64,000 nt of DNA from Streptomyces hyderabadensis (GTDB taxonomy: Bacteria > Actinomycetota > Actinomycetes > Streptomycetales > Streptomycetaceae). Positions within the stretch are counted from its first letter, which is position 1; each line of letters opens with the position of its first letter. The position numbers were made by a program, and so were the translations under genes. Positions 1,361 through 18,891 of the stretch are shown here, piece after piece. The notes under the pieces are model-generated. The model was given only the letters and a program-made list of their open reading frames with translations. It was not told where the DNA came from and searched no databases. The stretch lies in the NCBI RefSeq assembly GCF_020404845.1, contig NZ_JAIOJZ010000005.1:62001-126000 (forward strand), given 5' to 3'.

Positions 1361-1759
1361 ATGACCGCACGATTCGACGCCATCGGCCTCGTCGTCTCCG
1401 ACATGGCCGCCTCCGTGACCTTCTACCGCCGGCTCGGCTTCGCCTTCCCCGAGGGCTCCGAGGGGCAGCCGCACGCCGAGGCCGTTGTGCCGGGCGGCAT
1501 CCGACTGCTCCTGGACACCGAGGACTCCGTCCGCTCCTTCACTCCCGGCTGGCAGCCGCCGGCCGGGGGCGGGCGGCACTCCCTCGCCCTGCTGTGCGAC
1601 ACGCCCGAGGAGGTAGACGCCTGCTACGCCGACCTGACCGGTGCCGGGTGCAAGGGCGAGCGCGAGCCCTGGGACGCCCCCTGGGGGCAGCGGTACGCCG
1701 TCGTCAACGACCCGGACGGCCACGGCGTCGACCTCTTCGCGCCGCTAGCCGCGCAGTAG
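1361..1759 (+). CDS. VOC-family (glyoxalase/bleomycin resistance fold) protein
   Basis: This 132-residue protein is the usual length for a two-module VOC domain. The N-terminus ([20 protein letters not shown]) is the typical first beta-alpha unit with the FYxxLGF pattern. The C-terminal [14 protein letters not shown] supplies the second metal or substrate-binding strand (the NDPDGxxxxLF pattern). Members include glyoxalases, dioxygenases and drug-sequestering proteins, and nothing here fixes the substrate. The last 15 bases overlap tail-to-tail with the stop end of the AraC-type regulator on the opposite strand. Confidence 0.85.
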
Positions 1760-2428
1760 CTCGCCCGGCGTCGTACCCGCCAACTCGCGTACTTCACGCG
1801 TCAGATGGGCCTGGTCCGCGTAGCCGGTCAGGGCGGCCGTCTCGGCGAGCGGCGTGCCGTCCCTGGCCAGGGCGAGGGCGCGTTGCAGCCGCCGTACGCG
1901 GGCCAGCGTCTTGGGGCCGTAGCCGAAGGCGGCCAGCGAGCGGCGGTGCAGCGTGCGGGCTCCGATGCCGAGGGCGTCGGCGGTGGCGGCGACCGGGCGG
2001 CCCGCGTCGAGGGCGGCGACGATGCGACCCAGCAGCGGGTCGGGGGGCCCGGCCTCGGCGGCACGGGACAGCGCGGCGTCCTCCAGGCCCGTCGCCGGGT
2101 CGGGGGCCGCGTTCACCCGGGCGGTCAGGCGCCGTGCCTGGGTCGCGGGCCAGAGGTCGGCGAGGTCGACGCGCCGGTCGCGCAGTGCGTCGGCGGGGAC
2201 GCCGAGGAGGGCGGGGGCAGTGCCGGGGTAGAAGCGGACCCCGGCCCAGGGGCCCGGGGCGCCCTCGGTCACGTAGGCGTGGGTGTCGGGGCCCGCGACC
2301 AGCAACCGGCCGTCGTACCAGAGCAGATCCATGCACCCGTCGGGCAGCACCCGCCCGGGACCGGACCCGGTCGGGGTGTTGGTCCACACCACCGCACCGG
2401 TCAACCGTGACGCCCGCTCCGCATACAC
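1745..2428 (-). CDS. AraC-family transcriptional regulator with DUF6597-type N-terminal domain
   Basis: This is a 227-residue protein from the GTG at 2428 (V-Y-A-E-R-A-S-R). The longer upstream extension has poor coding character and overlaps a repeat, so it was not used. The N-terminal half contains [20 protein letters not shown], typical of the DUF6597 sensor domain found in front of AraC helix-turn-helix domains. The C-terminal half has two helix-turn-helix units: [21 protein letters not shown], with the conserved second-helix Arg residues, and [20 protein letters not shown]. It probably binds DNA and responds to an unknown small molecule. The target genes are unknown; the convergent VOC gene is the closest candidate. 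Confidence 0.85.
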
Positions 2429-2489
2429 GCCTGCCAGGCTACGCCGCAGCCCTATTGCTGCGGGCAGCCGCCGTAGCTGCGGGCAGTCG

Positions 2490-2537
2490 TGCCTCCCCCA
2501 GTGCCTGAACGGCCTGGGAGGTACCCCCAGGCGGCAC
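2490..2537. repeat. Palindromic intergenic repeat (Streptomyces CTCCCCCAG/GTACCCCCAG type)
   Basis: The segment contains CCTCCCCCAG at 2492-2501 and GGGAGGTACCCCCAGG at 2516-2531, bounded by GTGCC (2490-2494) and GGCAC (2533-2537). Copies of this C-rich and G-rich palindromic unit are, from memory, scattered through Streptomyces intergenic regions. It lies in the 178-base gap between two AraC-type genes on the same strand and could act as a transcript-end hairpin. Confidence 0.45.
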
Positions 2538-2606
2538 GGGTGGGCGCAGCGGCACCCCGCACCGCCGGGCAGCGCACCCCTTGCCCGCACCGACCCCGCA
2601 CCGGAG

Positions 2607-3539
2607 TCACACCCCGTTCCGGTACTCCTGCGGGCTGACCCCGTACTCCCGCTTGAACGCCGCGGACAGCGCGAACGCGCTGCCGTAGCCGACCCGGCGG
2701 GCGATCGCGCCGAGGGTGTCCTCTCCGTCCCGCAGCCGGTCGGCGGCCAGCGCGAGGCGCCAGCCGGTGAGGTAGGCCATGGGCGGTTCGCCGACCAGAT
2801 CGGTGAAGCGGCGGGCGAGCGCGGCGCGGGAGACGCCGGTCTTGGCGGCGAGGGACGCGACGGTCCACGGGTGCGCCGGATCGTCCTGGAGCAGCCGCAG
2901 CGCCCGGCCGACGACCGGGTCGCCCAGGGCCCGGTACCAGGCGGGGGCCTCGGCCGACGGACCGGCGAACCAGGCCCGCAGCGCGGCGATGACCAGCAGG
3001 TCCAGGAGCCGGTCCAGGACCACCTCCTGGCCCGGCTCGTCCCGCGTGACCTCCGTCATCAGCAGGGGGGTGAGGGGGTTGTCCCAGTCCTCGGAGGTGA
3101 GGGACAGCAGCGGGGGCAGCGCGTCGAGGAGCCGGCCGCCGATCTCGCCGCGGACCAGGTAGGTGCCGATGAGGAGGACCGCCTCGCCGTCGGCGCGGTC
3201 GCCCCAGGTGCGTACGCCGAGGTCCATCGAGCCGTTGAGGGGGCGTCCGTCGGGGTAACTGCACGCGCCGCCCGGCAGGATCACCGCCTGCGGGGCGGTG
3301 CCGGGGTCGTCGGCGCAGACGTACGGGTCGGGGCCGCGCGCGACGGCCAGATCCCCGGCCCGCAGCCGCAGCCGCTCCCCCGTGTCCGGCACGATCCAGG
3401 CGTCGCCGCGGACCATCAGCATCACGGTCAGCGGCGCCTCATCCTCGACGCGCACCGCCCAGGGCGGGTCGAAACAGGCGCGGATCATGAAGGCGCCACG
3501 GGCCCGGGGGCCCTCCAGCAGTCCGGCGAGTGCGTCCAC
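2607..3539 (-). CDS. AraC-family transcriptional regulator (cupin-type N-terminal domain)
   Basis: This 310-residue protein starts at GTG 3539 ([17 protein letters not shown]). A more upstream start would overlap the end of the preceding hydrolase gene. The N-terminal domain has the cupin-like strand series [20 protein letters not shown] ... [20 protein letters not shown] seen in the AraC-binding (cupin_6) family. The C-terminal 100 residues carry two helix-turn-helix units, [20 protein letters not shown] and [20 protein letters not shown] followed by the signature [12 protein letters not shown]. It probably regulates a neighbouring or catabolic gene. The alpha/beta hydrolase directly upstream on the same strand is a candidate target but this is not shown. 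Confidence 0.85.
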
Positions 3540-3598
3540 GCCGTCAGTGTCCCAGTGTTCCGGCCGACGGCCGCCCGGTGGGTCCGTACGTACCGGCC

Positions 3599-5152
3599 TC
3601 AGGACATGCTGCCCCGGCACACCGTCCCCACGGCCGGGGTGCGGCCCGTGCGGAGGTAGGTGTCGACCGCCTCCGTGACGCAGTCGTTCTGCGGGTACGT
3701 GCCGTGGCCCTCCTCCTCGGCCGTCAGGAGCACGCCGACACCGTCGCCCAGAGCGCGGGCCATGCGGCGGGCGCCGGGAAACGGGGTGGTCGGGTCGCCG
3801 GTGCCGCCGACCACGAGGATGGGGGCCGCACCGTCGGCGCCCACCTGGGGCGTGGCGCGCTCACCGTCGAACGGCCAGTCGTAGCAGAGGTAGACGCCGG
3901 TGGACCAGGCCTCGCCGAAGACGGGTGAGGCGGCCTCGATGCGGGCCGCGTCCCGGTCGAGGCGCTCGAAGCCGGGGCGCAGGCTGGAGTCCGCGCAGGT
4001 GATCGCGATCTGGGCGGCACGGCTGTCGTCCTGCGGACTCGACGCGCCGTCGGCGGAGCCGTTGTCGCCCGCGCCCTCGCTCAGCGGACCGGCGTCGTTG
4101 TGATCGATCAGCGCGGTCAGGGCCTTGGCGAGCGGCGGCCAGCCGTCCGTGCCGAGGTCGAGATAATCGCTGACGGCGTACGCGAGGTCGTCGGCGTCGA
4201 GTTTCCTCCCGCCGCCTGCCGGGGCGGGCTTCTTCGCCAAGCGGTCGGACAGTTGCGCCATGCGTCGCGCGGCCTCCTCGGGCCCGTCGCCGGTCGGGCA
4301 GTGGCGGATACGGGCCGCGCAGTGCGCGGCGAACCGGTCGAACGCCGCCTGGACCGCCTTGACCTGCGACAGCTGCTCCTCGCTGAGGTCCTCGGTCGGA
4401 TCGACGGGCGCTTCGAGGACGAGCCGTCCGACGTGCGACGGGTAGAGGTGGGCGTAGGTCGCGCCGAGCGCCGTTCCGTACGAGACGCCGAAGTAGTGCA
4501 GCCGCTCGTCGCCGAGGAGGTAGCGCATCAGGTCGAGGTCGCGCGCGGTGTGCGAGGTGCCGATGTACGGGACGAGCGCCCCGGAGTGCTCGGCGCAGGC
4601 CTCGGCCCCGTCGAAGCCGGTGTCGTCCGCGGTCTTCCCGCAGCGCACGGGGATGGTCCCGCCGACACCGCGCGGGTCGAAGGAGACCAGGTCGTAGCGG
4701 TCGAGGAGCGGCTCGTACTGGTCGAGGTACTCCGGCAGTCCGCGCACGCCGGACACGCCGGGACCGCCGAAGTTGAGGACGAGCGAGCCGATGCGCCGGG
4801 CGTTCGGGCCGGTGGCCTTGCGGCGGATCAGGGCGACGTCGATCGTCCTGCCGGCCGGTTTCCGGTAGTCGAGGGGGGTCTTCATGACGGCGCATTCGTA
4901 GGCCGTGCGCGCGGTCGGCGGCGAGGTGCAGCGGGACCAGTGGAGGTGCTGGCCGGTGGTGAGCGCGGCGGGCAGACCGGGGGGCGGGTTGTCCGCGGTG
5001 AACTCCGTACGCGGCTGCGCACTCCGGCCGGAGGCGTCGTGCTTGAGCCAGGCGCCGACGGCTCCGATCGCGACGAGGACGAGCACGCTGATGATCCGCA
5101 CACCGAGCGAGAGACCCGGTCTGCGGCTTCGTATCGGATGCACGTCACTCAT
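3599..5152 (-). CDS. Membrane-anchored alpha/beta hydrolase, tripeptidyl aminopeptidase (S33/TAP) type
   Basis: This 517-residue protein starts at ATG 5152, preceded by a G-rich ribosome binding site. Residues about 18-35 (VRIISVLVLVAIGAVGAW) form a signal anchor, so the catalytic part lies outside the membrane. NFGGPGVSG near residue 128 is the oxyanion-hole region. The nucleophile elbow GVSYG puts the catalytic Ser near residue 224. The C-terminal TAP-like domain supplies Asp (GGTGDPTTPF) and His (EEEGHGTY). Relatives are Streptomyces secreted tripeptidyl aminopeptidases and proline iminopeptidases that release short N-terminal peptides. The exact specificity is not deducible. A 95-base gap separates it from cutC upstream, so it may have its own promoter. 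Confidence 0.88.
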   Translation of the reverse strand: MSDVHPIRSRRPGLSLGVRIISVLVLVAIGAVGAWLKHDASGRSAQPRTEFTADNPPPGLPAALTTGQHLHWSRCTSPPTARTAYECAVMKTPLDYRKPAGRTIDVALIRRKATGPNARRIGSLVLNFGGPGVSGVRGLPEYLDQYEPLLDRYDLVSFDPRGVGGTIPVRCGKTADDTGFDGAEACAEHSGALVPYIGTSHTARDLDLMRYLLGDERLHYFGVSYGTALGATYAHLYPSHVGRLVLEAPVDPTEDLSEEQLSQVKAVQAAFDRFAAHCAARIRHCPTGDGPEEAARRMAQLSDRLAKKPAPAGGGRKLDADDLAYAVSDYLDLGTDGWPPLAKALTALIDHNDAGPLSEGAGDNGSADGASSPQDDSRAAQIAITCADSSLRPGFERLDRDAARIEAASPVFGEAWSTGVYLCYDWPFDGERATPQVGADGAAPILVVGGTGDPTTPFPGARRMARALGDGVGVLLTAEEEGHGTYPQNDCVTEAVDTYLRTGRTPAVGTVCRGSMS

Positions 5153-5247
5153 GGACACCCCCGTGATCGTCCGATCGTCGAATGAGTGCACAGTACAAGC
5201 CGCCTGCACGGTCCGGCCGGGCGCCGGTTGCGGCCCCGCTCCCGCCC

Positions 5248-6039
5248 TCAGCGTGTCGTGTCCAGCGCCCGCCTCGCCGCCGCGACGACCGTGCCGTCGG
5301 TGACGAAGTGGGTGTCGTCCTCGGCGGAGGTGCCGCCCGCGCCGAGGGGGACCCAGCCGGCCGCGCGCCGGGGCGTGGCCCGCGACTTGGCGGACAGGTG
5401 CACCGAGCCAGCGCCGTTCGCCAGCAGGCCGGGGATGTCGCCGGGTCGCACCCCGCCCCCGGCGGCCACGTCGACCCCGGGGGCCGCGGCGGCCATCGCG
5501 GTGAGCACGGCGGCGCCCTCGATCGCGGTGGGCGCTCCGCCGGAGGTCAGGACGCGGGTGATGCCGAGCCCCGGCAGCGCGGCGACGGCGGCCACCGGAT
5601 CGCTCGCCTGGTCCACCGCCCGGTGGAGCGTGACCTGTGCGGCGGGATCGGTGTCCCGGGCGGCGGCGACGAGCGCGGCGAGGGCCTTCGTGTCGAGGGC
5701 GCCGTCCGGCGTCAGCGCCCCGACGACGACCCCGCGGGCGCCCGCGCGCAGGGCGGCGCGCACCTCCGCGGTCATCAGGGCGACCTCCTCGCCGTCGTAC
5801 ACGAAGTCGCCGGGGCGGCAGCGGACCAGGACGTGGACGGGCGGCCCGGACTCGACGGCCGCCTCGACCGTCGCGGTCGAGGGGGTGAGGCCGCCCAGTT
5901 CCAGTCCGGTGCACAGTTCGACCCGGTCCGCGCCGTTCTCGCGGGCGGTGCGGGCTCCGGCCGGGGAGGTGACGGCGATCTCCAGGCTGGGACAGGCGTT
6001 CATGGCGCTCATGGCGCTCATGGCATTCGTGGCGCTCAT
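5248..6039 (-). CDS. cutC: CutC family TIM-barrel protein
   Basis: This 263-residue protein has the CutC core: LEIAVTSPAGARTARENGAD, RVELCTGLELGGLTPS, VHVLVRCRPGDFVYDGEE, VTLHRAVDQASDP and RVLTSGGAPTA. It starts by a 4-base ATGA overlap with the M81 gene upstream, implying translational coupling. The first codons are a micro-repeat (MSATNAMSAMSAMNA, a 9-base unit ATGAGCGCC repeated three times), so several ATG codons compete. CutC was named for copper tolerance in E. coli, but that phenotype was later traced to the small RNA MicL encoded within cutC, so a copper role should not be assumed. Here its operon is a peptide/sugar catabolic locus, which suggests a metabolic enzyme. Confidence 0.88.
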   Translation of the reverse strand: MSATNAMSAMSAMNACPSLEIAVTSPAGARTARENGADRVELCTGLELGGLTPSTATVEAAVESGPPVHVLVRCRPGDFVYDGEEVALMTAEVRAALRAGARGVVVGALTPDGALDTKALAALVAAARDTDPAAQVTLHRAVDQASDPVAAVAALPGLGITRVLTSGGAPTAIEGAAVLTAMAAAAPGVDVAAGGGVRPGDIPGLLANGAGSVHLSAKSRATPRRAAGWVPLGAGGTSAEDDTHFVTDGTVVAAARRALDTTR

Positions 6040-7571
6040 TCGTCGGCTCCGGTCAGCGGCTGGTCGGCCGCGGGGATCAGGCGGGCGGACAGGTCCGGGT
6101 CGGCCATGGCGGGGTCGAAGGGGAACATGGGGCGGCGGATGCGGTGGTGGCCGAGGCGGACCAGGTCCTGGTCGACGCCGCCCGGGGTGAGGGCCATCTT
6201 CCAGTCGGCGGCCATCGCGAACAGCTCGGGTTCCAGGTAGCCGATCTTCACGATCACGATGTCGGCGCCGCGCGGGTCGAGGTCCAGGTCGGTGAAGTCG
6301 TGCTCGTGGTGGTAGGGCTTGCGCAGCTCGGTGAGGATCACGTACGCGCTGCCGACGCGTATCACGACCTCGGTCCGCGCGTCGCGGTCGCCGTGCCGGA
6401 CGGCGTGCACGACGCCGGTGAGGGTGACGGGACCGGCGTGCCGGTCGTCGACCTCGGCGCCCGCCGTCACCGTGACCGTGGCCCCGACGCCCGCGGCGGC
6501 GGCCTGCCGGACGGCCTCCGGCCCCGGCACCGAGGCGTACAGGACGGTCGGCCCGTCCTCCTTCTGGAACTCGGGGCGGGCCAGCAGCCGCGTCAGGCCC
6601 CAGGTCACGTCACCGGCGCCGCCCGCGGTGGGGTTGTCGCCGGTGTCGCTGACGTAGTACGGGCGCCGCTCGCCGGCCAGGGCCTCGTCGAGGATGTCGT
6701 CGAAGGTGCCGGTCGGGGCGACGAAGTCGAAGTCGTGGCGGGCTGCCCAGAAGCCGCGGGCCAGCTTCTCGGCGCCTTCGGACACCGCCTGCTCGTCGTG
6801 TCCGGTGACGACGACCGCGGCCCGGTTGCGGGGTTCGTCCGCCCAGGCGTAGCCGACCCAGATCGCGGCGTCGATCACGCCGTCCTGGGCCTCGACCCCG
6901 GCGACGGCTCCGTACACGCTCTTCGCGGGCTCGATGCGGGTGGAGGTCTGCTCACCGGCGAGCAGGACGGGGACCGGCACCCATGCCTTCAGCGGGCGGG
7001 GGGCGCCGGAGGCGAGGTGCGTCAGCAGGTTCCGTACGGCCCGTTCCTTGGTCTCCATGTGGTCCTCGTGCGGGGCCATCCGGTAGCAGGTGATCAGGTC
7101 GCTGCGGTGGACGAGGGCGCGGGAGACGTTGCCGTGCAGGTCCATGGAGGTGGAGACGATCACGTCGTCGCCGACGACGGCGCGTACCTTCTCCAGGAGC
7201 AGGGCCTCGGCGTCGTCGACGCCCTCGACGGTCATGGCGCCGTGGATGTCGAACCAGAGGCCGTCCAGTGCGGGCAGCGCGGCGAGCCGGGTGAGGAGTT
7301 CCCCGGTGAGTTCCTCCCAGGCCGCGGCGGTGACGGTGCCGCCCGGCAGCGACTTGCCGACCAGGGCGCCGTGCCAGTCGGCCGCCTCGCGCAGTTCCTC
7401 GCCCGCGGCGAGGAAGGGGTAGCGGTCCAGGACCTCCTGGCCGCGGGAGGGGTGGAAGGCGGGCGCCTGGGTGCGGGCGGGCGAGAAGGTGGACGACTCG
7501 ATGCCGAGACCGGCGATGGCGACGACGGGGCGGCGGGAGCGGGTGGGGGCGGGGGTGCTGGGGTGCGACAT
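6036..7571 (-). CDS. M81 family metallopeptidase (MlrC-like)
   Basis: This 511-residue protein matches the M81/MlrC family over its length. The N-terminus has VVAIAGLGIESSTFSPARTQ. Metal-ligand candidates lie in FDIHGAMTVEGVDDAE and STSMDLHGNVS, together with RMAPHEDHMETKERA. The later segments SDTGDNPTAGGAGDVTW and VVIRVGSAYVILTELRKPYH are typical C-terminal domain motifs. MlrC was described as the last peptidase in microcystin degradation, but most homologues are of unknown substrate and commonly sit beside dipeptide ABC transporters, as here. Upstream, 50 bases away, is the ROK regulator; downstream, cutC overlaps by four bases. I infer cytoplasmic cleavage of the compound imported by the divergent ABC system. 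Confidence 0.87.
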   Translation of the reverse strand: MSHPSTPAPTRSRRPVVAIAGLGIESSTFSPARTQAPAFHPSRGQEVLDRYPFLAAGEELREAADWHGALVGKSLPGGTVTAAAWEELTGELLTRLAALPALDGLWFDIHGAMTVEGVDDAEALLLEKVRAVVGDDVIVSTSMDLHGNVSRALVHRSDLITCYRMAPHEDHMETKERAVRNLLTHLASGAPRPLKAWVPVPVLLAGEQTSTRIEPAKSVYGAVAGVEAQDGVIDAAIWVGYAWADEPRNRAAVVVTGHDEQAVSEGAEKLARGFWAARHDFDFVAPTGTFDDILDEALAGERRPYYVSDTGDNPTAGGAGDVTWGLTRLLARPEFQKEDGPTVLYASVPGPEAVRQAAAAGVGATVTVTAGAEVDDRHAGPVTLTGVVHAVRHGDRDARTEVVIRVGSAYVILTELRKPYHHEHDFTDLDLDPRGADIVIVKIGYLEPELFAMAADWKMALTPGGVDQDLVRLGHHRIRRPMFPFDPAMADPDLSARLIPAADQPLTGADE

Positions 7572-7621
7572 GGCTCCTCGTTCGTGCGGATGGTGCGGGA
7601 GGGGGTGCGGGTGGCGTCGGT

Positions 7622-8842
7622 TCAGGGGGCCGGGGTCTGGAACCGGTCCGGGTCCAGCTGGGCGCCGCCGACCTGGCGCAGGGCCTGGGCCAGCGCCCGC
7701 TGGAGGGCGAACTGCCCGGCGCCCAGCAGGCCGGCGTCGGCGCCGAGGACGGCGCGTTCGATGGCCAGGTGCTCGGTGACCAACGGGTGGCAGCTCTCGT
7801 AGAGCTGGCTGCGGACGGCGGCGACGAACGGTTCGACGGTGGAGAGGATGCCGCCCAGGTAGACGGCGTCCGGGTTGAAGAAGTTGACGTTCGCGGCGAG
7901 CACCTGGCCGAGGTAGTCCCCGGCCCTGCGCACCGCCCGGTTGGCCTCCGGGTGCGCGTCGGTGGCCAGCCGCACCACGTCCTCGGCGGTGGTGACGTCG
8001 ACGCCCTCGTCCCGCAGCACCCGGACGAGGGCGGCGCCGGAGGCGACCGTCTCCAGGCAGTCGGTGTTGCCGCAGGAGCAGGGCATGTGGTCGCCGCGGG
8101 CGATGCGGATGTGGGTGATCTCCCCCGCCGCGCCCGTGCCGCCGCGGTAGAGCCGGCCGTCGACGAGGGCGGCGGCGCCGATCGCGGTGCCCATCTTCAC
8201 CATGATCACCTGCTGGTGGCGTCCCCGGCGGGCGGTGTGCTCGCCCACGGCCATGCAGTTGGCGTCGTTGTCGGCGACGGCCGGGACGGCGAACCGCTCC
8301 CGGAGCCAGGACTCGACGGGGAAGCGGTTCCAGCCGGGCATGCGGGAGGGCTGCACGACGCTGCCCGTCGCGGTGTCGACCGGGCCGGGCAGGGAGAGGC
8401 CGACGCCGCGCAGCCGTGCCCTGCCGTGCCGTTCGACCAGCTCGTCCAGGGTGGTGGCGAGCCGGGCGAGGGAGGCCTCCGGGCCCTCCGCGATCACCAG
8501 GGGCACGGTGGAGACGTCGCGCAGCTCGCCGCCCGGCAAAACCACCCCGACGCGGGCGTGTCTGCCGCCCAGGTCGGCGGCGACGGCGAACTCGTCCTGG
8601 CCGCCGAGTCTGAGCACCTTGCGCGGGCGTCCGCCGGTGGAGGACTGGGTCCCTTCCTCGGCGACGAGGCCGTGCTCCACGAGCTGGCCCACGGCCACCG
8701 AGACGCTGGAGGCCGCGGCGCCGAGCAGCTCGGCGAGCTGGGCCCGGGAGGTCGCCCGGCCGGAGGCGATCAGTTCGAGGGCTCGCGCCGCCAGCGCCGA
8801 GGTGCCCGCCGCCTTCCGGCCCCGCGTACTTATTTCATTCAT
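7622..8842 (-). CDS. ROK-family transcriptional repressor
   Basis: This 406-residue protein has an N-terminal winged helix (ARALELIASGRATSRAQLAE and SVSVAVGQLVEHGLVAEEG), then a ROK sugar-kinase-like domain starting at FAVAADLGGRHARVGVVLPG. The ROK zinc motif is present as HMPCSCGNTDCLE (the CxCGxxxCxE pattern). Members such as NagC and XylR bind operators and are released by a sugar or sugar phosphate. It is the first gene of the operon with M81 and cutC and is divergent from the ABC importer, the usual place for a local repressor. A candidate operator is the inverted repeat at 8978-8999. Confidence 0.9.
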   Translation of the reverse strand: MNEISTRGRKAAGTSALAARALELIASGRATSRAQLAELLGAAASSVSVAVGQLVEHGLVAEEGTQSSTGGRPRKVLRLGGQDEFAVAADLGGRHARVGVVLPGGELRDVSTVPLVIAEGPEASLARLATTLDELVERHGRARLRGVGLSLPGPVDTATGSVVQPSRMPGWNRFPVESWLRERFAVPAVADNDANCMAVGEHTARRGRHQQVIMVKMGTAIGAAALVDGRLYRGGTGAAGEITHIRIARGDHMPCSCGNTDCLETVASGAALVRVLRDEGVDVTTAEDVVRLATDAHPEANRAVRRAGDYLGQVLAANVNFFNPDAVYLGGILSTVEPFVAAVRSQLYESCHPLVTEHLAIERAVLGADAGLLGAGQFALQRALAQALRQVGGAQLDPDRFQTPAP

Positions 8843-8977
8843 CTACGTGCTTACTTCCCCATGGTCGGTCCGATGCAGACAGTACGCCTCAATCGCCGCT
8901 GCGTGAATGGTGATCCACGCAGGAAATCGCCGTACGGGAGCCGCCCGGACTTTTTTCAGAACCGGAGATACTTACTT

Positions 8978-8999
8978 GTTACAGAACTTTGTTTGTAAC
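8978..8999. promoter_or_regulatory. Inverted repeat in the ROK/ABC divergent promoter region
   Basis: GTTACA (8978-8983) and TGTAAC (8994-8999) form a perfect 6-bp inverted repeat in an unusually AT-rich patch of the 211-base region between the divergent ROK regulator and the ABC importer. The motif ACTTACTT also overlaps its left edge, and a related CTTACTT lies near the ROK start codon. This placement fits an operator for the ROK repressor, but binding is inferred only. Confidence 0.4.
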
Positions 9000-9053
9000 C
9001 CGCACCGAGACAGGCGTTAGCTGACCTCCAGCCCACTCACCTGGAGGAGATAC

Positions 9054-10862
9054 ATGTCCCCTGCTCGCACAGCGACACGCCGACGCCGGGCGCTCGTCGT
9101 CGGCGCATGCGCGGCCGTGGGCGTGCTGCTCAGCGGCTGCACGGGCGGGGTGTCCGCCCCCTCCGGCTCGAAGAACGAGATCAACTACGCCCTCCCGGCG
9201 AACTTCACCCCCAACTGGATCGTGCCGATCGGAACGCCCGGTCACCTCAACACCAACAACGCCTCGATATCCCAGGTCCTGTGGGAGCCGCTGATCGCCT
9301 ACGACGGCTCGGCCGGCAAGATCGGCTGGAACAAGGACAACTCGCTGGCGACGGACGCGAAGTTCGCCGCGGACAACAAGAGCGTCACCATCACCCTCGG
9401 CGACCGCCACTGGAGCGACGGCGAGCCGGTCACCTCCCGCGACGTCGAGTTCTGGTTCAACCTGGTCCGTCAGAACAAGAAGTCGTGGGCCAGCTACAGC
9501 CCGGGCAAGGCCCCGGACGTCTGGACCTCCTTCAAGACCGTCGACGACCGGCACTTCACGCTCGACTTCGACCGCGCCTACAACCGGCAGTGGATGCTCG
9601 CCAACGAGCTGAGCATGATCCGTCCGATGCCGCAGCACGTGTGGGACAAGACCGGCGACTCGGGGGCCGTCTCCGACCTCGACCGCACCCCGGCCGGCGC
9701 CGAGAAGGTCTGGACGTACCTGATCGACGCCGGCAAGAAGATCTCCCACTACGCGAGCGACCCGCTGTGGAAGACGGTCAGCGGCCCGTACACGCTCAAG
9801 TCCTTCTCCACCTCCGGCCGGGTCGAGCTGATCGAGAACGAGAAGTACGACGGCGGGGGCGCGGCCCACGTCCGGCAGATCAACCTGCTGTCGTTCACCA
9901 CCGCGGCCGCAGAGGAGAACGCGCTGCGGGCCGGCACGGTCGACTACGGCTACATCAAGGCCTCCGACCTGGGCATCAAGAAGTCCTTCACGGACCTCGG
10001 CTACCACGTCGAGCGCTGGTCCGGCTGGGCCGTCACCTACATGCCGTACAACTTCAACAACCCCGAGATGGGCGCGGTCTTCAAGCAGTTGTACGCCCGG
10101 CAGGCCATCCAGATGTCCGTGGACCAGAAGACCCTGGCCAAGGTGCTCTACAACGGCACCGCCGTGCCCACCTACGGCCCCGTCCCGCAGGGGCAGGCGT
10201 CCGCCTTCCTCTCCGGCGAGCAGAAGGCCGAGCCGTACCCCTTCTCCAACTCCCGGGCGCGCAAGCTGCTGACGGACCACGGCTGGAGCCTGAAGGACGG
10301 CACCATGGTGTGCACCTCGCCGGGCGCGGGCGCGGGGCACTGCGGCGAGGGCGTCGAGGAGGGCACCGAGTTCCGGATGCGGGTGCTCTCCCAGTCCGGC
10401 TCCACGGAGACGGACAACATGATGAGCGCGCTGCAGTCCTCCTTCGAGGAGACCGGCATCGACTTCGACATCAAGACCGCGCCGGTCAACTCGGTCCTCT
10501 CGCAGACCGGTCAGTGCAAGCAGGACGACCCCGCCTGCAAGTGGCAGCTCTCCTTCTTCGGCAGCGCCGGCAGCTGGTACTTCCCCGCCTACCCGAGCGG
10601 CGACGCGCTGTTCGCCAGCGGCGGCGGCTCCAACTTCGGCAGCTACTCCAACCCCGAGGTGGACGAGCTGATCGACCGGACCACCACCTCCTCGTCCCCC
10701 GACGCCATGCTCGACTACAGCAAGGCGCTCGCCGAGGACCTGCCCGTGATCTGGCTCCCCGAGCCCGACTACCAGGTCTCCGTGATCAGGGACGGACTCG
10801 GCGGGTTCGCCCAGGACTCGCTCGCCAACTTCCACCCCGCCATGTGGGCGTGGACGAAGTGA
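9054..10862 (+). CDS. Family 5 extracellular peptide-binding lipoprotein of an ABC importer
   Basis: This 602-residue protein has a twin-Arg-like basic start followed by a hydrophobic stretch and the lipobox LLSGC, so it should be a lipoprotein on the outer face of the membrane. An excellent ribosome binding site (GGAGGAG) lies before the ATG. Family 5 solute-binding features include QVLWEPLIAYDG near the N-terminus, DRHWSDGEPVTSRDVEFWFN, YARQAIQMSVDQKTLAKVLY and the C-terminal LAEDLPVIWLPEPDY. Members bind di- and oligopeptides or other short compounds. It heads a five-gene operon with two permeases, a double ATPase and a ROK kinase. Confidence 0.92.
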   Translation: MSPARTATRRRRALVVGACAAVGVLLSGCTGGVSAPSGSKNEINYALPANFTPNWIVPIGTPGHLNTNNASISQVLWEPLIAYDGSAGKIGWNKDNSLATDAKFAADNKSVTITLGDRHWSDGEPVTSRDVEFWFNLVRQNKKSWASYSPGKAPDVWTSFKTVDDRHFTLDFDRAYNRQWMLANELSMIRPMPQHVWDKTGDSGAVSDLDRTPAGAEKVWTYLIDAGKKISHYASDPLWKTVSGPYTLKSFSTSGRVELIENEKYDGGGAAHVRQINLLSFTTAAAEENALRAGTVDYGYIKASDLGIKKSFTDLGYHVERWSGWAVTYMPYNFNNPEMGAVFKQLYARQAIQMSVDQKTLAKVLYNGTAVPTYGPVPQGQASAFLSGEQKAEPYPFSNSRARKLLTDHGWSLKDGTMVCTSPGAGAGHCGEGVEEGTEFRMRVLSQSGSTETDNMMSALQSSFEETGIDFDIKTAPVNSVLSQTGQCKQDDPACKWQLSFFGSAGSWYFPAYPSGDALFASGGGSNFGSYSNPEVDELIDRTTTSSSPDAMLDYSKALAEDLPVIWLPEPDYQVSVIRDGLGGFAQDSLANFHPAMWAWTK

Positions 10863-10923
10863 GGCCGCGCCCGGCCCCGCTCATCCGCAGCCTCCCCGTC
10901 CGCACCCAGTCACCCGGAAACCC

Positions 10924-11883
10924 ATGAGCACATACTCCTTCCTGATCAGGCGGGTCCTGCAGGCCCTGGCGGTGGTCCTCCTCGTGACCGTCGTGGTGTT
11001 CTGCCTGCTGCACGCCCTGCCCGGGGGCCCCGCCCGCGGCATCCTCGGCCCCCAGGCCACCGCCTCGCAGATCACCGCCTTCAACCACGAGCAGGGACTC
11101 GACAGGCCGCTGCCGGTCCAGTACGTGTACTACCTGAACCAGCTGATCCACGGCGATCTCGGCATGTCGTACACCCTCAACGAGCCCGTCTCCCAGCTGA
11201 TCACCGAACGGCTGCCGAAGACGCTGCTGCTGACCGTCCTGTCGGCGGTCGTCGGGCTGCTGGTCGCGGTGCCGCTCGGCGTGTGGCAGGCCGTCCGCCG
11301 CAACAAGCCGGTCGACTACGTCATCACCACGCTCAGCTTCATCGCCTACTCCACCCCCGTGTACTTCCTCGGCCTGATCCTGGTCCTGGTCTTCAGCCAG
11401 GTCCTGCCCTGGTTCCCGGCCCAGGCGCCGCAGGGCAACAGCGTCTGGGCCGTGCTCTCCCAGCCCCAGGGTCTGGTGCTGCCGGTGGTGGCCGGCGCGG
11501 CCACGATGGTCGCCGTCTTCAGCCGCTACATGCGCTCGGCCACCCTGGAGAACCTCACCGAGGACTACGTGCGCACGGCACGGGCCGGCGGCTCCCGCCC
11601 CCGGGCCATCCTGACCCGGCACGTCTTCCGCAACTCGCTGACTCCCGTGGTGGCCATGCTCGGCTACTACGTGCCGGTCCTCTTCGGCGGCGCGCTGGTG
11701 GTGGAGCAGCTCTTCAACTACCCGGGCATGGGCCTGCTGTTCTGGACCGCCGCCCAGTCCTCCGACTACCCCGTGCTGCTGGGCTGCGTGCTGGTCATCT
11801 CGATCGCGACGGTGACCGGCACCCTCCTGGCCGACGTCCTGCAGCGCGTCATCGACCCCCGAGTGAAGGCAGGTCGGTCATGA
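10924..11883 (+). CDS. Dipeptide-type ABC importer permease, DppB-like
   Basis: This 319-residue inner-membrane protein opens with FLIRRVLQALAVVLLVTVVV, typical of DppB/OppB. It contains a large extracellular segment after the first helix and the cytoplasmic EAA loop YVRTARAGGSRPRAILTRHV that contacts the ATPase, followed by FRNSLTPVVAMLGYYVPVLF and the conserved VVEQLFNYPGMGLL. It begins 61 bases after the binding-protein gene and overlaps the next permease by four bases (ATGA). With the DppC partner it forms the channel for the solute delivered by the lipoprotein. Confidence 0.92.
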   Translation: MSTYSFLIRRVLQALAVVLLVTVVVFCLLHALPGGPARGILGPQATASQITAFNHEQGLDRPLPVQYVYYLNQLIHGDLGMSYTLNEPVSQLITERLPKTLLLTVLSAVVGLLVAVPLGVWQAVRRNKPVDYVITTLSFIAYSTPVYFLGLILVLVFSQVLPWFPAQAPQGNSVWAVLSQPQGLVLPVVAGAATMVAVFSRYMRSATLENLTEDYVRTARAGGSRPRAILTRHVFRNSLTPVVAMLGYYVPVLFGGALVVEQLFNYPGMGLLFWTAAQSSDYPVLLGCVLVISIATVTGTLLADVLQRVIDPRVKAGRS

Positions 11884-14503: not shown

Positions 14504-15426
14504 GCGGTCCCGACACCCCCGTCTTCGCAGGGGTAGACATCGGGGGCACCACCACCCAGGTGGTGCTCTGCGACGCGGAACTGAAGGTGCTCGACCGCAC
14601 GGAGGTGGCCACCCCGGCCCGGTCCGGCGGCCGGGCGATGATCGCCGCGACCCTCGACGCGCTCGCCGTCGTGCGGGCCCGCACCCCCGGCCGGCTGGCC
14701 GCTGTGGGAGTGGGCGCGGCCGGGGTGGTCGACGCGGCCTCCGGTCACGTCCTGGTGGCGAGCGACTCGTTCACCGACTGGGCCGGTTTCCCGGTGACCG
14801 CCGCCCTGCGCACCGCGCTGGGCGTCCCGGCCTTCCTCGACAACGACGTCAACGCTTTCCTGCGCGGCGAGATCGCGTGCGGTGCGGCGGCGGGCGAGGA
14901 GGACGTCCTGGGCATGACCCTGGGCACCGGCGTCGGCGGGGCGCTGTGGACGGGGGGCGCGCTGCGCACCGGGGCCCACGGTGCGGCCGGCGAGATCGGC
15001 CACATCCCCGGCTTCGGCGACCTGCCGTGCACCTGCGGCGGCCGCGGCCACCTGGAGACGCTGGCCTCGGCCCGTTCCCTGCGGGCCCGCTACGGCGAGC
15101 GCACCGGGCGGGAGCTGACCGCCCGCGAGGTGGCCGAGGCGGCGCGGAACGGGGACGCCGACGCGCATGCCGTGTACGCGGCGGCGGGCGCCGGCATCGC
15201 CCGCGCGATCGTGATGACCGCGGGCCTGGTCGACATCGCCACGGTCGTGATCGGGGGCGGCGTCAGCGGCGCCTGGCCGCTGCTGGAACCGCTGATCCAG
15301 GAGGCTCTGACCGCCGAGCCGCCGATCAGCGGTCATCCCGTCAAGCTGCTGCGGGCCGCCTTGGGCGCCGACGCGGTGCCCCTGGGCGCGGCGGCCCGGG
15401 CACACGCCGAACTGACCGCCCGCTGA
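14500..15426 (+). CDS. ROK-family sugar kinase (glucokinase/N-acetylhexosamine kinase-like)
   Basis: This 308-residue protein starts at a GTG overlapping the stop of the ATPase gene (GTGA). The N-terminal phosphate loop reads FAGVDIGGTTTQVVLCD. The catalytic region is FLDNDVNAFLRGEIACGAAA (DN pair), followed by GMTLGTGVGGALW. The ROK zinc centre is present as EIGHIPGFGDLPCTCGGRGH. It lacks a DNA-binding domain, so it is an enzyme rather than a regulator. Placement as the last gene of a peptide ABC operon suggests that the imported compound carries a sugar or amino sugar that is phosphorylated after cleavage. The exact sugar is not predictable. Confidence 0.88.
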
Positions 15427-15480: not shown

Positions 15481-16998
15481 CTACGGCGCGGGGCGCATGG
15501 CCACGCCCTTGTTCAGGGTGCCGGTGCCGGTCCCGGTGTACAGGAGCAGCGTGCCCTGACCGCCGACGGCGGCGATGTCGTCCTTGTTGTCGCCGTTGAA
15601 GTCACCGCCGACGATGCGCTTCATGGGGGTCCAGGTGTTGTCGGGCCACAGTTTGCGGGCCGGGTCGAGGCCCCCCGAGGAATTGCCCGCGTACCAGTTC
15701 AGACTGCCGTCGTCGCGCACCGCGACCAGGTCGTCGCGGCCGTCGGCGTTGATGTCGGCGGTGCCGGTGAGGCGGGTCTTGCCCCAGGTGGCGTCCGGCC
15801 ACATCTTGACCTTCTCGCCGGTCAGCACGCCGTCGGCGCCGGTGTAGTAGCCGTAGAGACTGCCGTTGCCCCACTGGGCGATCAGACCGTCACGGCCGTC
15901 GAACGTGAACCGGGAGACCTGCTCGATCGTCTTCCAGGACGTGTCGTGCCACATGGGCTTGCTCTTGTTGAGCATGCCGGTGGGGGTGCCCGTGTACAGG
16001 TTGAGGGTCCCGTCGCTGCGCACCGCGGCGATGTCGCCGTTGCCGTCGCTGTCGAAGTCGCCGCCGATGATCTGCACCATCGGGCCCCAGGTCTTGTCGT
16101 TCCACAGTTCGCGCCCGTACTCCAGCGTCCCGTCGGGCTTGGTGTAGAAGGCGTGCAGGGAACCGTCGTCCAGGACGGCGGCGATGTCCGTGCGGCCGTC
16201 GCGGTTGAAGTCGGCGGAGGCCACCAGGTCGCTCAGGTTGCCGGTGCCGAGATCGCGGTTGACGGTCTGTTCGACGAAGTCGGCGTCGCTCGCGGCCGCG
16301 ACGGCGTCCGTGCTGGTCGACTCCGACCCGAAGCAGCCGCCCTGCATCGAGCGGCTGTTGACGCCCACCAGCTCCAGGGCACCGTCCTGGTTCTGGAGCA
16401 GCGGGCCGCCGGCGTCACCGGCACACACCGCGTCGCCGTCCTGACCGGTGACGTCGATCGCGTCGGCGGTGACCGACGTGACCGTGAAGGCGCCCTGGTG
16501 ACGCTGGGTGGGCACCCATTCGTCCTTCGTCCGTCCGAAGCCCACGGCGGTGAGCGGCGCGCCGGGGGCCGGGGCGGCCGCCGCGAGGGGCACCGGCGCG
16601 ATGTCGGGGACGGCCTTGTCCAGCCGCGCGAGGAGCATGTCCCGGCCCGGGTGCGGGACGAGTTCGACGACCTCGCGCACATAGCCGTTGGCGATGCCGG
16701 AGTCGGCCCGGCCCACGGTGGCCCGGGTCGGTTCCCCGGGCTTGCCGGCTGCGACGGTGTCCGGCCGGCTGGGGTCGTCCGCGAAGCAGCTCGCCGCGGT
16801 GAGCACCCACTGAGCGTCCACCAGGGCACCCGAGCATGCGCGGTAGTCGGTGCCTATGGTCAGCCGGACGGCGAAGTCCAGCTTCGCTTCGGTGGCCGGG
16901 GCGCCGACGGTGGCATGGGCCGGGCTGGACGCCAGGGCCCCGGCGAGGAGGACGGCGGAGAGAGCGGCGAACCGGGCGGAACGCGGCACAGGAAACAT
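15481..16998 (-). CDS. Secreted trypsin-fold pseudo-protease with C-terminal FG-GAP/VCBS repeats
   Basis: This 505-residue protein starts at ATG 16998 with a GAAGGA ribosome binding site and a signal peptide ending near SSPAHA. The N-terminal half is a chymotrypsin-fold (S1) domain, but the active-site His is replaced: the block reads QWVLTAASCF where active enzymes have TAAHC. The nucleophile block reads GDAGGP instead of GDSGGP, so Ser is Ala. The Asp block (DMLLARL) is kept. Catalysis is therefore very unlikely. The C-terminal half holds about five FG-GAP/VCBS units (DFNRDGRTDIAAV, DFDSDGNGDIAAV, DINADGRDDLVAV, DFNGDNKDDIAAV) with Ca-binding Asp/Asn patterns, expected to form a beta-propeller. 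It is probably an extracellular binding protein. Confidence 0.88.
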   Translation of the reverse strand: MFPVPRSARFAALSAVLLAGALASSPAHATVGAPATEAKLDFAVRLTIGTDYRACSGALVDAQWVLTAASCFADDPSRPDTVAAGKPGEPTRATVGRADSGIANGYVREVVELVPHPGRDMLLARLDKAVPDIAPVPLAAAAPAPGAPLTAVGFGRTKDEWVPTQRHQGAFTVTSVTADAIDVTGQDGDAVCAGDAGGPLLQNQDGALELVGVNSRSMQGGCFGSESTSTDAVAAASDADFVEQTVNRDLGTGNLSDLVASADFNRDGRTDIAAVLDDGSLHAFYTKPDGTLEYGRELWNDKTWGPMVQIIGGDFDSDGNGDIAAVRSDGTLNLYTGTPTGMLNKSKPMWHDTSWKTIEQVSRFTFDGRDGLIAQWGNGSLYGYYTGADGVLTGEKVKMWPDATWGKTRLTGTADINADGRDDLVAVRDDGSLNWYAGNSSGGLDPARKLWPDNTWTPMKRIVGGDFNGDNKDDIAAVGGQGTLLLYTGTGTGTLNKGVAMRPAP

Positions 16999-17030
16999 GG
17001 AAGTCCTTCGTTCGGGAGTGTGCGGGAGGG

Positions 17031-18566
17031 TCAGAGAGTGATCATGAACGTGCCCTGGTCCCAATAGGTGCCGTGGTTGGTGCGGACGGCGACCCTCCCG
17101 TCCTTGGTGTGGACGAACATGTCGGCCTTGCCGTCTCCGGTGGCGTCGCCGAACTTGAGCGATCCCAGGTCGCTGCCGTCCACGAAGCGGCCCCAGCCGC
17201 CGGACCAGTGGGTGCCCTGGTCCCAGTAGGTGCCGCGGTTGAAACGGACCTCGATGTTGCCGTCGCTGGTGTGGACGACCATGTCCGCCTTGCCGTCGCC
17301 GTCGACGTCGGCGAAGTACAGCCGGCCCAGGTCCTTCCAGGTCACGAAGCGGCCCCAGCCGCCGGACCAGTGGGTGCCCTGGTCCCAGTAGGTGCCGCGG
17401 TTGAAACGGACCTCGATGTTGCCGTCGCTGGTGTGGACGATCATGTCCGCCTTGCGGTCACCGTCGACGTCGGCGAAGTACAGCCGGCCCAGGTCGCTGC
17501 CGTCGATGAAGCGGCCCCAGCCGCCGGACCAGTGGGTGCCCTGGTCCCAGTAGGTGCCGCGGTTGAAACGGACCTCGATGTTGCCGTCGCTGGTGTGGAC
17601 GATCATGTCCGCCTTGCGGTCACCGTCGACGTCGGCGAAGTACAGCCGGCCCAGGTCCTTCCAGGTCACGAAGCGGCCCCAGCCGCCGGACATGACCCGG
17701 CCGGGGGCGAAGCTGTCGCCCAGGTTGCGGTGGACGACGACGTCGCCGTTCGAGCGGAGGACGACCAGGTCGGCCTTGCCGTCGCCGTCGACGTCGGCCG
17801 AGTGGGTCCGGTCGCGGTTGCGGACGTCCTTCACCCAGTCCGCCAGGCCGTCGACCCTCGCGTCCACCGCGCCGGTCCGGGTCTCGGTCTCGGTCTCGCC
17901 GAAGCACCCGCCCTGCCAGGAGCGGCTGTGGACGGCGGCCAGCTCCACCTCACCGCCCGTACCGCGCAGGGCCGGGCCACCGGTGTCGCCCTTGCACACG
18001 GACACCCCGTCCTGACCGGTCAGCTCCACGGTGGTGTCGGTGACGGAGTCCACCCGGAACTCACCGGTGTGCAACTGGTCCGGGGCCCACTCCGTCCGGG
18101 TCCGCCCGAACCCGGCACCGAGCAGGGTCTCGGCCGCCACGGGGGCGTCCGCGGCCAGTTCCACGGGCGTGACCGTGGTGACGGGTTCGGCGAGCCGGAC
18201 CATGGCCACGTCCCGGTCGTCGCGCGGCACGACCTCGACTATGTCGAGGGTCTTGCCGCCCAGGGTCGCCGTGGACTTCAGCGCGGGCTTGCCGGACTCG
18301 ACCTCGCCCCCCGGGGTGGCGGCGAAACAACTGGCGGCGGTCAGCAGCCACTGCTGGTGCACCAGAGCGGCGGAACAGCCGCGCAGGGTATCGCCCTCGC
18401 CGATCTGCAGCCGGGCGGTGAAGGCATGGTCGGCTGCGGCCGCGGGCTCGCCGGAAATCGCCTGCGCGGCCGGCACCGCGGTGAGCAGGGCGGCGGCGGC
18501 CGTGAGGACCATGCCGCCGGCCAGGGCGCCGCGAGCCCGCCGGGTGCGGATTCCTTCGTTGAGCAA
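17031..18566 (-). CDS. Second secreted trypsin-fold pseudo-protease with near-identical VCBS repeats
   Basis: This 511-residue protein is read from a TTG at 18566 because AAGAAGGGAAG lies just upstream and the next residues form a normal signal peptide ending PAAQA. An ATG at 18644 would add an unlikely 26-residue front. The S1-like domain again lacks the catalytic residues: QWLLTAASCF replaces TAAHC and KGDTGGP replaces GDSGGP (Ser to Thr), while the Asp block DVAMVRL is kept. The C-terminal half has FG-GAP units with DVDGDGKADLVVL-type Ca loops and a 54-residue unit repeated almost identically. It is a tandem paralogue of the gene at 15481-16998, 32 bases upstream on the same strand, so both are likely co-expressed extracellular binding proteins. 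Confidence 0.85.
   Translation of the reverse strand: MLNEGIRTRRARGALAGGMVLTAAAALLTAVPAAQAISGEPAAAADHAFTARLQIGEGDTLRGCSAALVHQQWLLTAASCFAATPGGEVESGKPALKSTATLGGKTLDIVEVVPRDDRDVAMVRLAEPVTTVTPVELAADAPVAAETLLGAGFGRTRTEWAPDQLHTGEFRVDSVTDTTVELTGQDGVSVCKGDTGGPALRGTGGEVELAAVHSRSWQGGCFGETETETRTGAVDARVDGLADWVKDVRNRDRTHSADVDGDGKADLVVLRSNGDVVVHRNLGDSFAPGRVMSGGWGRFVTWKDLGRLYFADVDGDRKADMIVHTSDGNIEVRFNRGTYWDQGTHWSGGWGRFIDGSDLGRLYFADVDGDRKADMIVHTSDGNIEVRFNRGTYWDQGTHWSGGWGRFVTWKDLGRLYFADVDGDGKADMVVHTSDGNIEVRFNRGTYWDQGTHWSGGWGRFVDGSDLGSLKFGDATGDGKADMFVHTKDGRVAVRTNHGTYWDQGTFMITL
17181..17690 (-). repeat. Tandem 162-bp coding repeats in the VCBS domain
   Basis: The landmark GAAGCGGCCCCAGCCGCCGG recurs at exact 162-base steps (units beginning at 17181, 17343, 17505 and 17667). 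The units at 17343 and 17505 are nearly identical over about 140 bases. Differences cluster where the encoded linker alternates between VTWKDLG and DGSDLG, so a 324-base higher-order period is also visible. This indicates recent duplication or gene conversion. Confidence 0.9.
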
Positions 18567-18891
18567 CGCACTTCCCTTCTTCGGAATCGTTCCGGCCACA
18601 AGAGGACCTTCCGAATTGGCAGTGGAAATATCTGATGCGTGACGCATCGTACACAAGCCGTCCCGAACCGCTGCACAGCAAAGTCACCGGCAACCCGGAA
18701 TTTCTTCACGAAAACTTGCGTGGTATGTGAATGAAGTGCGGCACTACCACTGGAAGCGGACACAACGCCCAACGAGTTGCGCACTGCCGCATAGAGTATG
18801 ATCTTGGTCGCCGAATTCCCGGGAACCGCATTCCTCTATCGTCGAGAAATTGGCGTCGAACGAGCCGGCGCGTATTCCTGTTTCCTTTTCC
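18567..18891 (-). promoter_or_regulatory. Intergenic regulatory region with a perfect 15-base palindrome
   Basis: This 325-base region without a gene lies upstream of the pseudo-protease operon and downstream of the brkB-like gene. It is clearly more AT rich than its surroundings. It contains GATGCGTGACGCATC at 18634-18648, a perfect inverted repeat (7+1+7), 68 bases upstream of the chosen TTG start. A TACGAT element precedes it on the minus strand and could be a -10. It may hold the operon promoter and an operator. I see no further gene in it. Confidence 0.45.

What the first reader, a model, noticed from the sequence alone, without database searches (positions are those of the whole stretch)
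15481..18566. Two tandem secreted trypsin-fold proteins have lost the catalytic His and Ser
In both proteins the His block reads TAASC instead of TAAHC. The nucleophile block reads GDAGGP in the first and GDTGGP in the second instead of GDSGGP, while the Asp block is kept. The same His change and two different Ser replacements in neighbouring paralogues suggest selection for a non-proteolytic fold joined to an FG-GAP/VCBS propeller. The pair may be secreted ligand-binding or inhibitor proteins rather than proteases.
Basis: partly seen in the sequence, partly recalled or inferred. Interest (0 to 1): 0.72.

Follow-up and report, generated by a model that had tools for sequence, protein, structure and literature searches.

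The report
Umbrella-toxin lectins with dead trypsin domains
Two neighbouring Streptomyces genes encode secreted proteins whose dead trypsin domain most likely docks a carbohydrate-binding propeller onto antibacterial "umbrella" particles, and one of the two is a protein that databases call the fusidic acid esterase FusH.

Summary
In detail: both minus-strand genes encode a trypsin (S1) fold plus a five-repeat FG-GAP propeller, with TAASC for TAAHC and GDTGGP (gene A, 17031-18599) or GDAGGP (gene B, 15481-16998) for GDSGGP. These are not recent losses in the pair: none of 85 relatives with position 57 aligned has both His57 and Ser195 (sample biased towards FusH-like hits).

The family is UmbA, the lectin subunit of Streptomyces umbrella toxin particles, published in 2024 and 2025. 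Its dead trypsin cleft holds the N-terminus of UmbB, which sits on the toxin UmbC; the propeller chooses the target cell. Gene B is 86% identical to the UmbA1 chain of structure 8W20 and is the UmbA6 type. Gene A passes the NCBIfam cut-off for FusH, a reported fusidic acid esterase, and by residue numbering, elimination and synteny it is probably UmbA5. The genome holds a umbC-umbB-umbA locus on another contig, and its UmbB carries the docking motif AVED.

A link between FusH and UmbA appeared in no paper I searched; it leaves the reported esterase activity without a visible triad.

The parts
17031..18599 (-). Gene A: FusH / probable UmbA5-type protein, 522 aa from GTG 18599 (mature part guessed to begin at 18458); in the place of SCO6108
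   Evidence: NCBIfam NF000157 1101.2 bits against cut-off 999; 93% identical (mature part) to the copies in G245 and G118; start inferred from the published RokB site
15481..16998 (-). Gene B: UmbA6-type protein, 505 aa from ATG 16998 (mature part guessed to begin at 16911); in the place of SCO6109
   Evidence: PDB 8w20_C 939.8 bits; 85.9% identical over 475 residues
17820..18458 (-). Gene A trypsin-like domain
   Evidence: Pfam PF00089; Foldseek hits to 9oee and 8w20
18327..18341 (-). Gene A His block TAASC (Ser at position 57)
   Evidence: sequence
17973..17990 (-). Gene A nucleophile block GDTGGP (Thr at position 195)
   Evidence: sequence
18102..18104 (-). Gene A Arg166, at the number of the UmbA5 Arg reported to pair with the Glu of UmbB's AVED motif
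   Evidence: index 166 from the GTG start; paper passage
17034..17810 (-). Gene A FG-GAP propeller, five repeats (predicted lectin)
   Evidence: Pfam FG-GAP_3; five motifs; model of lower confidence here
16273..16911 (-). Gene B trypsin-like domain
   Evidence: Pfam PF00089; Foldseek 8w20_G, 82% identity, rmsd 2.4
16786..16800 (-). Gene B His block TAASC
   Evidence: sequence
16402..16419 (-). Gene B nucleophile block GDAGGP (Ala at position 195)
   Evidence: sequence
16531..16533 (-). Gene B Arg156, at the number of the UmbB-contacting Arg156 of UmbA1
   Evidence: index 156 from the ATG start; paper passage
15484..16236 (-). Gene B FG-GAP propeller, five repeats (predicted lectin)
   Evidence: Pfam; five motifs; 89.2% identical to the lectin part of 8w20_C
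18553..18582 (-). RokB binding-site-like stretch at the start of gene A
   Evidence: 28 of 30 bases equal to the published Psco6108 site
7622..8842 (-). ROK-family regulator-like gene, in the place of RokB (SCO6115)
   Evidence: Pfam ROK, plus a MarR_2 match below Pfam's cut-off
14587..15426 (+). ROK-family kinase-like gene, in the place of SCO6110 (5' end not defined)
   Evidence: Pfam ROK; order as in PMC4856308

Best explanation
The two genes are orphan umbA genes. Each protein is probably secreted. Its trypsin-like domain has no catalytic triad and is a docking module: the cleft that held substrate in a protease binds the extended N-terminus (AVED motif) of the adaptor UmbB without cutting it, through a conserved Arg (166 in gene A, 156 in gene B). 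UmbB sits on the ring of the toxin protein UmbC, so the C-terminal propeller is displayed on a spoke of the particle and selects which competitor's surface carbohydrate is bound. Gene A probably corresponds to UmbA5 and gene B to UmbA6 of S. coelicolor. Shown here: sequence, fold match, the contact Arg, and a umbC/umbB/umbA locus elsewhere in the same genome. Shown in the literature for relatives: binding, lack of casein cleavage, particle structure, target selection. Inferred: that these two proteins load onto this strain's particle, and which cells they bind.
For: Gene B is 85.9% identical (82% trypsin part, 89% lectin part) to 8w20_C; 8W20 is the Umb1 particle, in which UmbA1 was modelled. 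Gene A's best sequence and fold matches are 9oee (UmbA4) and 8w20. The G245 copy of gene B has 87.3% lectin identity to 8w20_C (G118 copy 88.4%); the paper gives 87% for UmbA1/UmbA6. Gene A's Arg is residue 166 from the GTG start, as the paper's text gives for UmbA5. In relative G245 the three strong UmbA matches away from ALF genes are a UmbA4 orthologue (1522 bits to 9oee), gene A's and gene B's orthologues; the published orphans are UmbA4-6. The own genome has a umb locus on C111: UmbA, an 8-ALF UmbC matching 8w20_A (277.6 bits) and a UmbB matching 8w20_B (74.8 bits) with AVEDFNYP. In Streptomyces sp. NRRL S-340 (L003) a FusH-like gene (82% in the trypsin part) stands beside umbB and umbC matches. 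UmbA and ALF matches co-occur: 40 of 42 UmbA genomes against 25 of 79 others, Fisher 1.8e-12, not corrected for relatedness. Position 194 is Asp in 87 of 87 and 102 is Asp in 86 of 87.
Against: No binding was tested. The window's genes are not next to umbB or umbC. UmbA5 = SCO6108 is inferred: the accession tables (supplements) could not be read; the same paper's Extended Data legend calls the mutated UmbA5 residue R176, not 166, and residue 176 of gene A is Leu; and my trypsin-domain identity to 8w20_C is 48-50% over aligned residues against a published 43% for UmbA1/UmbA5. G245 has two ALF loci where S. coelicolor has three UmbC proteins, so it is not S. coelicolor itself. Two genomes (G010, G060) have UmbA without an ALF match. 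The gene A model is only moderate (pLDDT 75.4). FusH has been reported as an esterase, which docking alone does not explain.
Confidence: 0.92

Rival explanations
1. Gene A is first of all a secreted fusidic acid esterase (FusH) that works with a non-canonical active site, and gene B is its paralogue.
For: NCBIfam equivalog above cut-off. Literature passages state that FusH removes acetyl, thioacetyl or formyl groups from fusidic acid or its derivatives and gives resistance. The casein assay on UmbA5 would not be expected to see an esterase.
Against: No His57 and no Ser195 in the FusH-like copies printed. Position 195 is Thr or Ala among FusH-like proteins 84-85% identical to gene A. A scan for FusH-only conserved polar residues shows no obvious new triad. 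A FusH-like gene sits in a umb locus. The 1997 paper could not be read.
Confidence: 0.2
2. Both functions are real: a particle lectin that also carries a weak or specific ester-cleaving site.
For: Both claims are published for what appears to be the same protein; purifying selection acts on the FusH trypsin part (dN/dS 0.22 and 0.26 against G245 and G118).
Against: No site can be named. Conservation in the cleft is already explained by UmbB binding.
Confidence: 0.2
3. They are ordinary trypsin-like proteases with unusual residues.
For: Pfam Trypsin hits; the RokB paper calls SCO6109 a putative trypsin-like protease.
Against: Triad incomplete in every relative of the sample with position 57 aligned; published trypsin domains of UmbA1 and UmbA5 showed no activity on casein.
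Confidence: 0.02
4. They are decaying pseudogenes or protease inhibitors.
For: Loss of the triad alone.
Against: Intact frames, dN/dS 0.20-0.42 over all comparisons made, invariant cleft residues.
Confidence: 0.02

Closest known systems
UmbA1 / UmbA6 of the Streptomyces coelicolor umbrella toxin particles (PDB 8W20, 8W22)
   Same: Gene B: same two domains, TAASC, 86% identity to 8w20_C, Arg156
   Different: Ala instead of Thr at position 195 (8w20_C has GDTGGP); orphan location; particle membership not tested
UmbA5 of S. coelicolor
   Same: Gene A: Arg at number 166, five-repeat propeller (paper: 5-bladed), orphan location
   Different: Identity with UmbA5 is inferred; the paper's legend uses R176
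FusH (SCO6108; SLI6108 in S. lividans), fusidic acid esterase, NCBIfam NF000157
   Same: Gene A passes the equivalog cut-off; same neighbours SCO6109, ROK kinase, oligopeptide transporter, RokB
   Different: Activity not tested here; 1997 paper not seen
UmbA4 (PDB 9OEE)
   Same: Trypsin-like domain of the same family
   Different: UmbA4 has an additional bulb lectin (paper passage); genes A and B have one propeller
Streptomyces griseus trypsin (1OS8)
   Same: Fold
   Different: Active protease (recalled); triad absent here; no propeller there

Membership tests
UmbA (umbrella particle lectin) | Trypsin-like domain without a complete His-Asp-Ser triad, in a secreted protein | tested here: met
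   secretion only guessed from the N-terminus by eye
UmbA (umbrella particle lectin) | C-terminal lectin-type domain such as a propeller | tested here: met
   FG-GAP repeats in both; carbohydrate binding not tested
UmbA (umbrella particle lectin) | Conserved Arg that contacts the Glu of UmbB's AVED motif | tested here: met
   Residues 166 and 156; motif in own UmbB; the contact itself not tested
UmbA (umbrella particle lectin) | UmbB and UmbC present in the same genome | tested here: met
   Contig C111
UmbA (umbrella particle lectin) | Co-purifies with UmbC or UmbB | not testable with these tools
   Needs an experiment
FusH (NF000157) | Score above the equivalog cut-off | tested here: met
   Gene A 1101.2 against 999; gene B 172.2, not met
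FusH (NF000157) | Hydrolyses the acetyl ester of fusidic acid | not testable with these tools
   Literature statements only
Active S1 serine protease | His57, Asp102 and Ser195 | tested here: not met
   Only Asp102 kept

The most novel reading that the evidence does not exclude
FusH and UmbA5 are one protein, and it does both jobs: it is a lectin spoke of an antibacterial particle and an acetyl-esterase that works in a trypsin fold without His57 or Ser195. Its natural ester might be an O-acetyl group on a competitor's surface glycopolymer, with fusidic acid as a by-substrate: the umbrella receptors of two target species are reported to be O-acetylated at the chain end. Against this last step, those receptors belong to other UmbAs, and the species that UmbA5 targets is said to lack a recognizable gene cluster for that polymer.
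Probability: 0.15. Interest if true: 0.75.

Novelty: new member of a known kind. Interest (0 to 1): 0.42.

Why it matters
It joins two literatures that I found joined in no searched text: a resistance-gene model (FusH) and the umbrella particle lectins. If they are the same protein, labels such as "Secreted esterase" on UmbA chains (PDB names both 8w20_C and 9oee_A so) and fusidic acid resistance calls in Streptomyces need review, or an unexplained esterase needs a mechanism. A deletion strain that could help decide is published (umbA5).

Tried and rejected

Limits of the counts: the 93 non-redundant sequences come from 142 hits of a model seeded mostly with TAASC sequences, on loci chosen mostly as best FusH-like hits, so they are not a random sample. 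Six were set aside for lacking the exact GxGRT string: two canonical trypsins (L017, L018) and four family-like ones (L021, L104, L108 with GRS, L046 with GQT). In one search only 24 candidates and only 54 candidates per genome were scored, so both tallies are lower bounds, and the thresholds differ (1e-20 and 0.001). In one search, of 91 stretches with a UmbA match (stretches over 4.4 kb, and the window), 52 had umbB and umbC matches, 14 umbB only, 2 umbC only, 23 neither (the window among them); flanks are short and several stretches repeat one genome.
Full report
WHAT IS THERE. Two genes lie head to tail on the minus strand: gene A (17031-18599) and gene B (15481-16998), 32 bases apart. Each protein has a signal-peptide-like start (by eye), a trypsin-like domain and an FG-GAP propeller with five evenly spaced repeats. 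Both have TAASC where an active trypsin has TAAHC. The nucleophile block is GDTGGP in A and GDAGGP in B. The Asp block is intact. In both proteins the guessed mature N-terminus (AQA-ISG, AHA-TVG) resembles the I/V-V-G-G start of an activated trypsin, and Asp194, its usual partner, is kept (inference from sequence and recalled knowledge of trypsins).

FIRST IDENTIFICATION: FUSH. NCBIfam names gene A "fusidic acid esterase FusH" as an equivalog (1101.2 bits, cut-off 999); gene B scores 172.2. In S. coelicolor fusH is SCO6108 and forms a possible operon with SCO6109, next to a ROK kinase (SCO6110), an oligopeptide transporter (SCO6111-6114) and rokB (SCO6115), according to passages of PMC4856308. 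The window has the same order: ROK-family gene 7622-8842(-), an ABC transporter at about 9.1-14.5 kb, ROK kinase to 15426(+), gene B, gene A (the binding-protein position, 9107-10927, gave no Pfam hit). The published RokB site inside sco6108 is present in two relatives, G245 and G118, at 30 of 30 bases and in the window at 28 of 30. Other passages say that FusH cleaves acetyl, thioacetyl or formyl groups from fusidic acid or its derivatives and gives resistance (PMC4476819; PMC12493156; PMC10644348). The original 1997 paper is not held, so I have not seen its evidence.

FUSH ITSELF LACKS THE TRIAD. The two copies that score higher than the window's against the FusH model, in G245 (1195.8 bits) and G118 (1155.5 bits; window 1118.9) (392 genomes, three over the cut-off), read TATSC and GDTGGP; L001 and L003 read GDAGGP. 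The state is general among the relatives sampled. Of 87 non-redundant relatives with the GxGRT string, position 57 is Ser in 80, Thr in 2, His in 2, Gly in 1 and unaligned in 2; position 195 is Thr in 56, Ala in 28, Ser in 2, Gly in 1; none of the 85 with position 57 aligned has both His57 and Ser195. Asp102 is kept in 86 of 87, Gly193 and Asp194 in 87 of 87 (biased sample, see Tried and rejected).

SECOND IDENTIFICATION: UMBA. The best PDB match of gene B is 8w20_C (939.8 bits), 85.9% identical, 82% in the trypsin part and 89% in the lectin part; gene A's best matches are 9oee_A and 8w20_C. PDB labels both chains "Secreted esterase"; the entries are the Umb1 umbrella toxin particle and UmbA4 bound to its receptor. 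AlphaFold models of A (pLDDT 75.4, pTM 0.60) and B (85.2, 0.70) give the same two entries as top hits by Foldseek; TM-scores over the whole models are low (0.40-0.44), perhaps because the two domains are placed differently, and the trypsin parts fit chains 8w20_E and 8w20_G well (TM by target 0.85 for A, 0.91 for B). Passages of PMC11062931 say: UmbA proteins have a trypsin-like domain and one or more lectin domains; none of S. coelicolor's six has a complete triad; [quoted passage not shown] in models the N-terminus of UmbB (Ala-Val-Glu-Asp) lies in the cleft and its Glu pairs with Arg156 of UmbA1 or Arg166 of UmbA5; substitutions at these positions in UmbB1 and UmbA5 abolished binding. PMC13274773 (passages) adds that different UmbAs select different target species, and that it found 9,455 sequences with this inactive trypsin domain in Streptomycetaceae genomes.

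WHICH UMBA. Gene A's Arg is residue 166 when counted from GTG 18599, and the same holds in G245 and G118; gene B's is 156 from its ATG. In G245 five strong UmbA matches exist (a sixth, E 8.7e-4, is left out): two near ALF genes, and three elsewhere, which are gene A's and gene B's orthologues and a UmbA4 orthologue (1522 bits to 9oee). The published orphans are UmbA4, UmbA5 and UmbA6, and UmbA6's lectin is 87% identical to UmbA1's; G245's gene B copy gives 87.3% to 8w20_C, G118's 88.4%. So gene B is UmbA6-type and gene A probably UmbA5. This is inference; the papers' held text names neither SCO6108 nor FusH. Against it: an Extended Data legend calls the mutated UmbA5 residue R176 instead of 166, which in gene A is Leu; and my trypsin-domain identity to 8w20_C is 48-50% over aligned residues, while 43% is published for UmbA1/UmbA5, perhaps from a different count.

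PARTNERS. The own genome has one ALF-repeat gene, on contig C111, with 8 repeats. It matches the UmbC chain 8w20_A (277.6 bits). Beside it lie a third UmbA (with GRS in place of GRT) and a 182-aa protein matching the UmbB chain 8w20_B (74.8 bits) that carries APGYAVEDFNYP. In Streptomyces sp. NRRL S-340 (L003) the FusH-like gene itself, 82% identical in the trypsin part, sits beside umbB and umbC matches; its propeller looks broken or misassembled, with one repeat motif readable. L001 and L002 show no umbB or umbC match within their short flanks. Among 121 genomes of the window's genus, 42 have UmbA (E <= 1e-20) and 65 have ALF repeats; 40 have both, 2 UmbA only, 25 ALF only, 54 neither (Fisher 1.8e-12). 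With 7 or more repeats: 36 genomes, 35 of them with UmbA. Shared ancestry was not corrected for.

HOW IT LIKELY WORKS. Reported for relatives: docking of UmbB in the dead cleft, display of the propeller on a spoke, choice of target cell by the UmbA. Inferred here: that genes A and B load onto this strain's C111 particle and widen its target range, as orphan UmbAs do in S. coelicolor. A reason for lacking the triad then suggests itself: a cleft that must hold its partner's N-terminus should not cut it.

WHAT REMAINS OPEN. If FusH is UmbA5, an esterase activity is claimed for a protein without a visible triad. Neither umbrella paper's held text contains FusH, fusidic acid or esterase. A search pairing umbrella toxin, UmbA, FusH, fusidic acid and SCO6108 found 62 papers with at least two terms, 20 listed; among those listed none holds both "umbrella toxin" and a FusH or fusidic acid term. 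Subscription papers and preprints were not searchable. FusH-only conserved polar residues exist but suggest no triad. I cannot decide between a wrong label, a second active site, or both functions.

VERDICT. Observation confirmed; interpretation partly supported; family known; the bridge between FusH and UmbA is the part worth a specialist's time.

Noticed in passing
L161 (own genome, C111:30000-46000), UmbA 4626-7085(-), UmbC 7107-10640(-), UmbB 11107-11655(+): An umbrella toxin locus elsewhere in the same genome; its UmbA has GRS in place of GRT.
   Followed up: partly
L003 (Streptomyces sp. NRRL S-340), about 1500-5550: FusH-like umbA next to umbB and umbC matches, with a propeller that looks broken or misassembled.
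   Followed up: partly
PDB 8w20_C and 9oee_A: Both UmbA chains carry the depositor name 'Secreted esterase', possibly a label spread from FusH.
   Followed up: no
window 18553-18582: RokB-site-like stretch inside the start of gene A, suggesting the pair is under a ROK regulator as proposed in S. coelicolor.
   Followed up: partly
L062 and L089; L100 and L126: Two UmbA relatives keep His57 (TAKHC) but have Ala195; two others keep Ser195 with Ser57.
   Followed up: no
G010 and G060: Two genomes with UmbA matches but no ALF-repeat match.
   Followed up: no
window 18069-18071(-), His130 of the mature gene A protein: Invariant His (alignment A3) in the GRTxxxWxPxxxH stretch of the family; its role is not explained by the published Arg-Glu contact.
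   Followed up: no
window 6036-7571(-): M81 family (MlrC-like) metallopeptidase gene beside the ROK-family gene.
   Followed up: no
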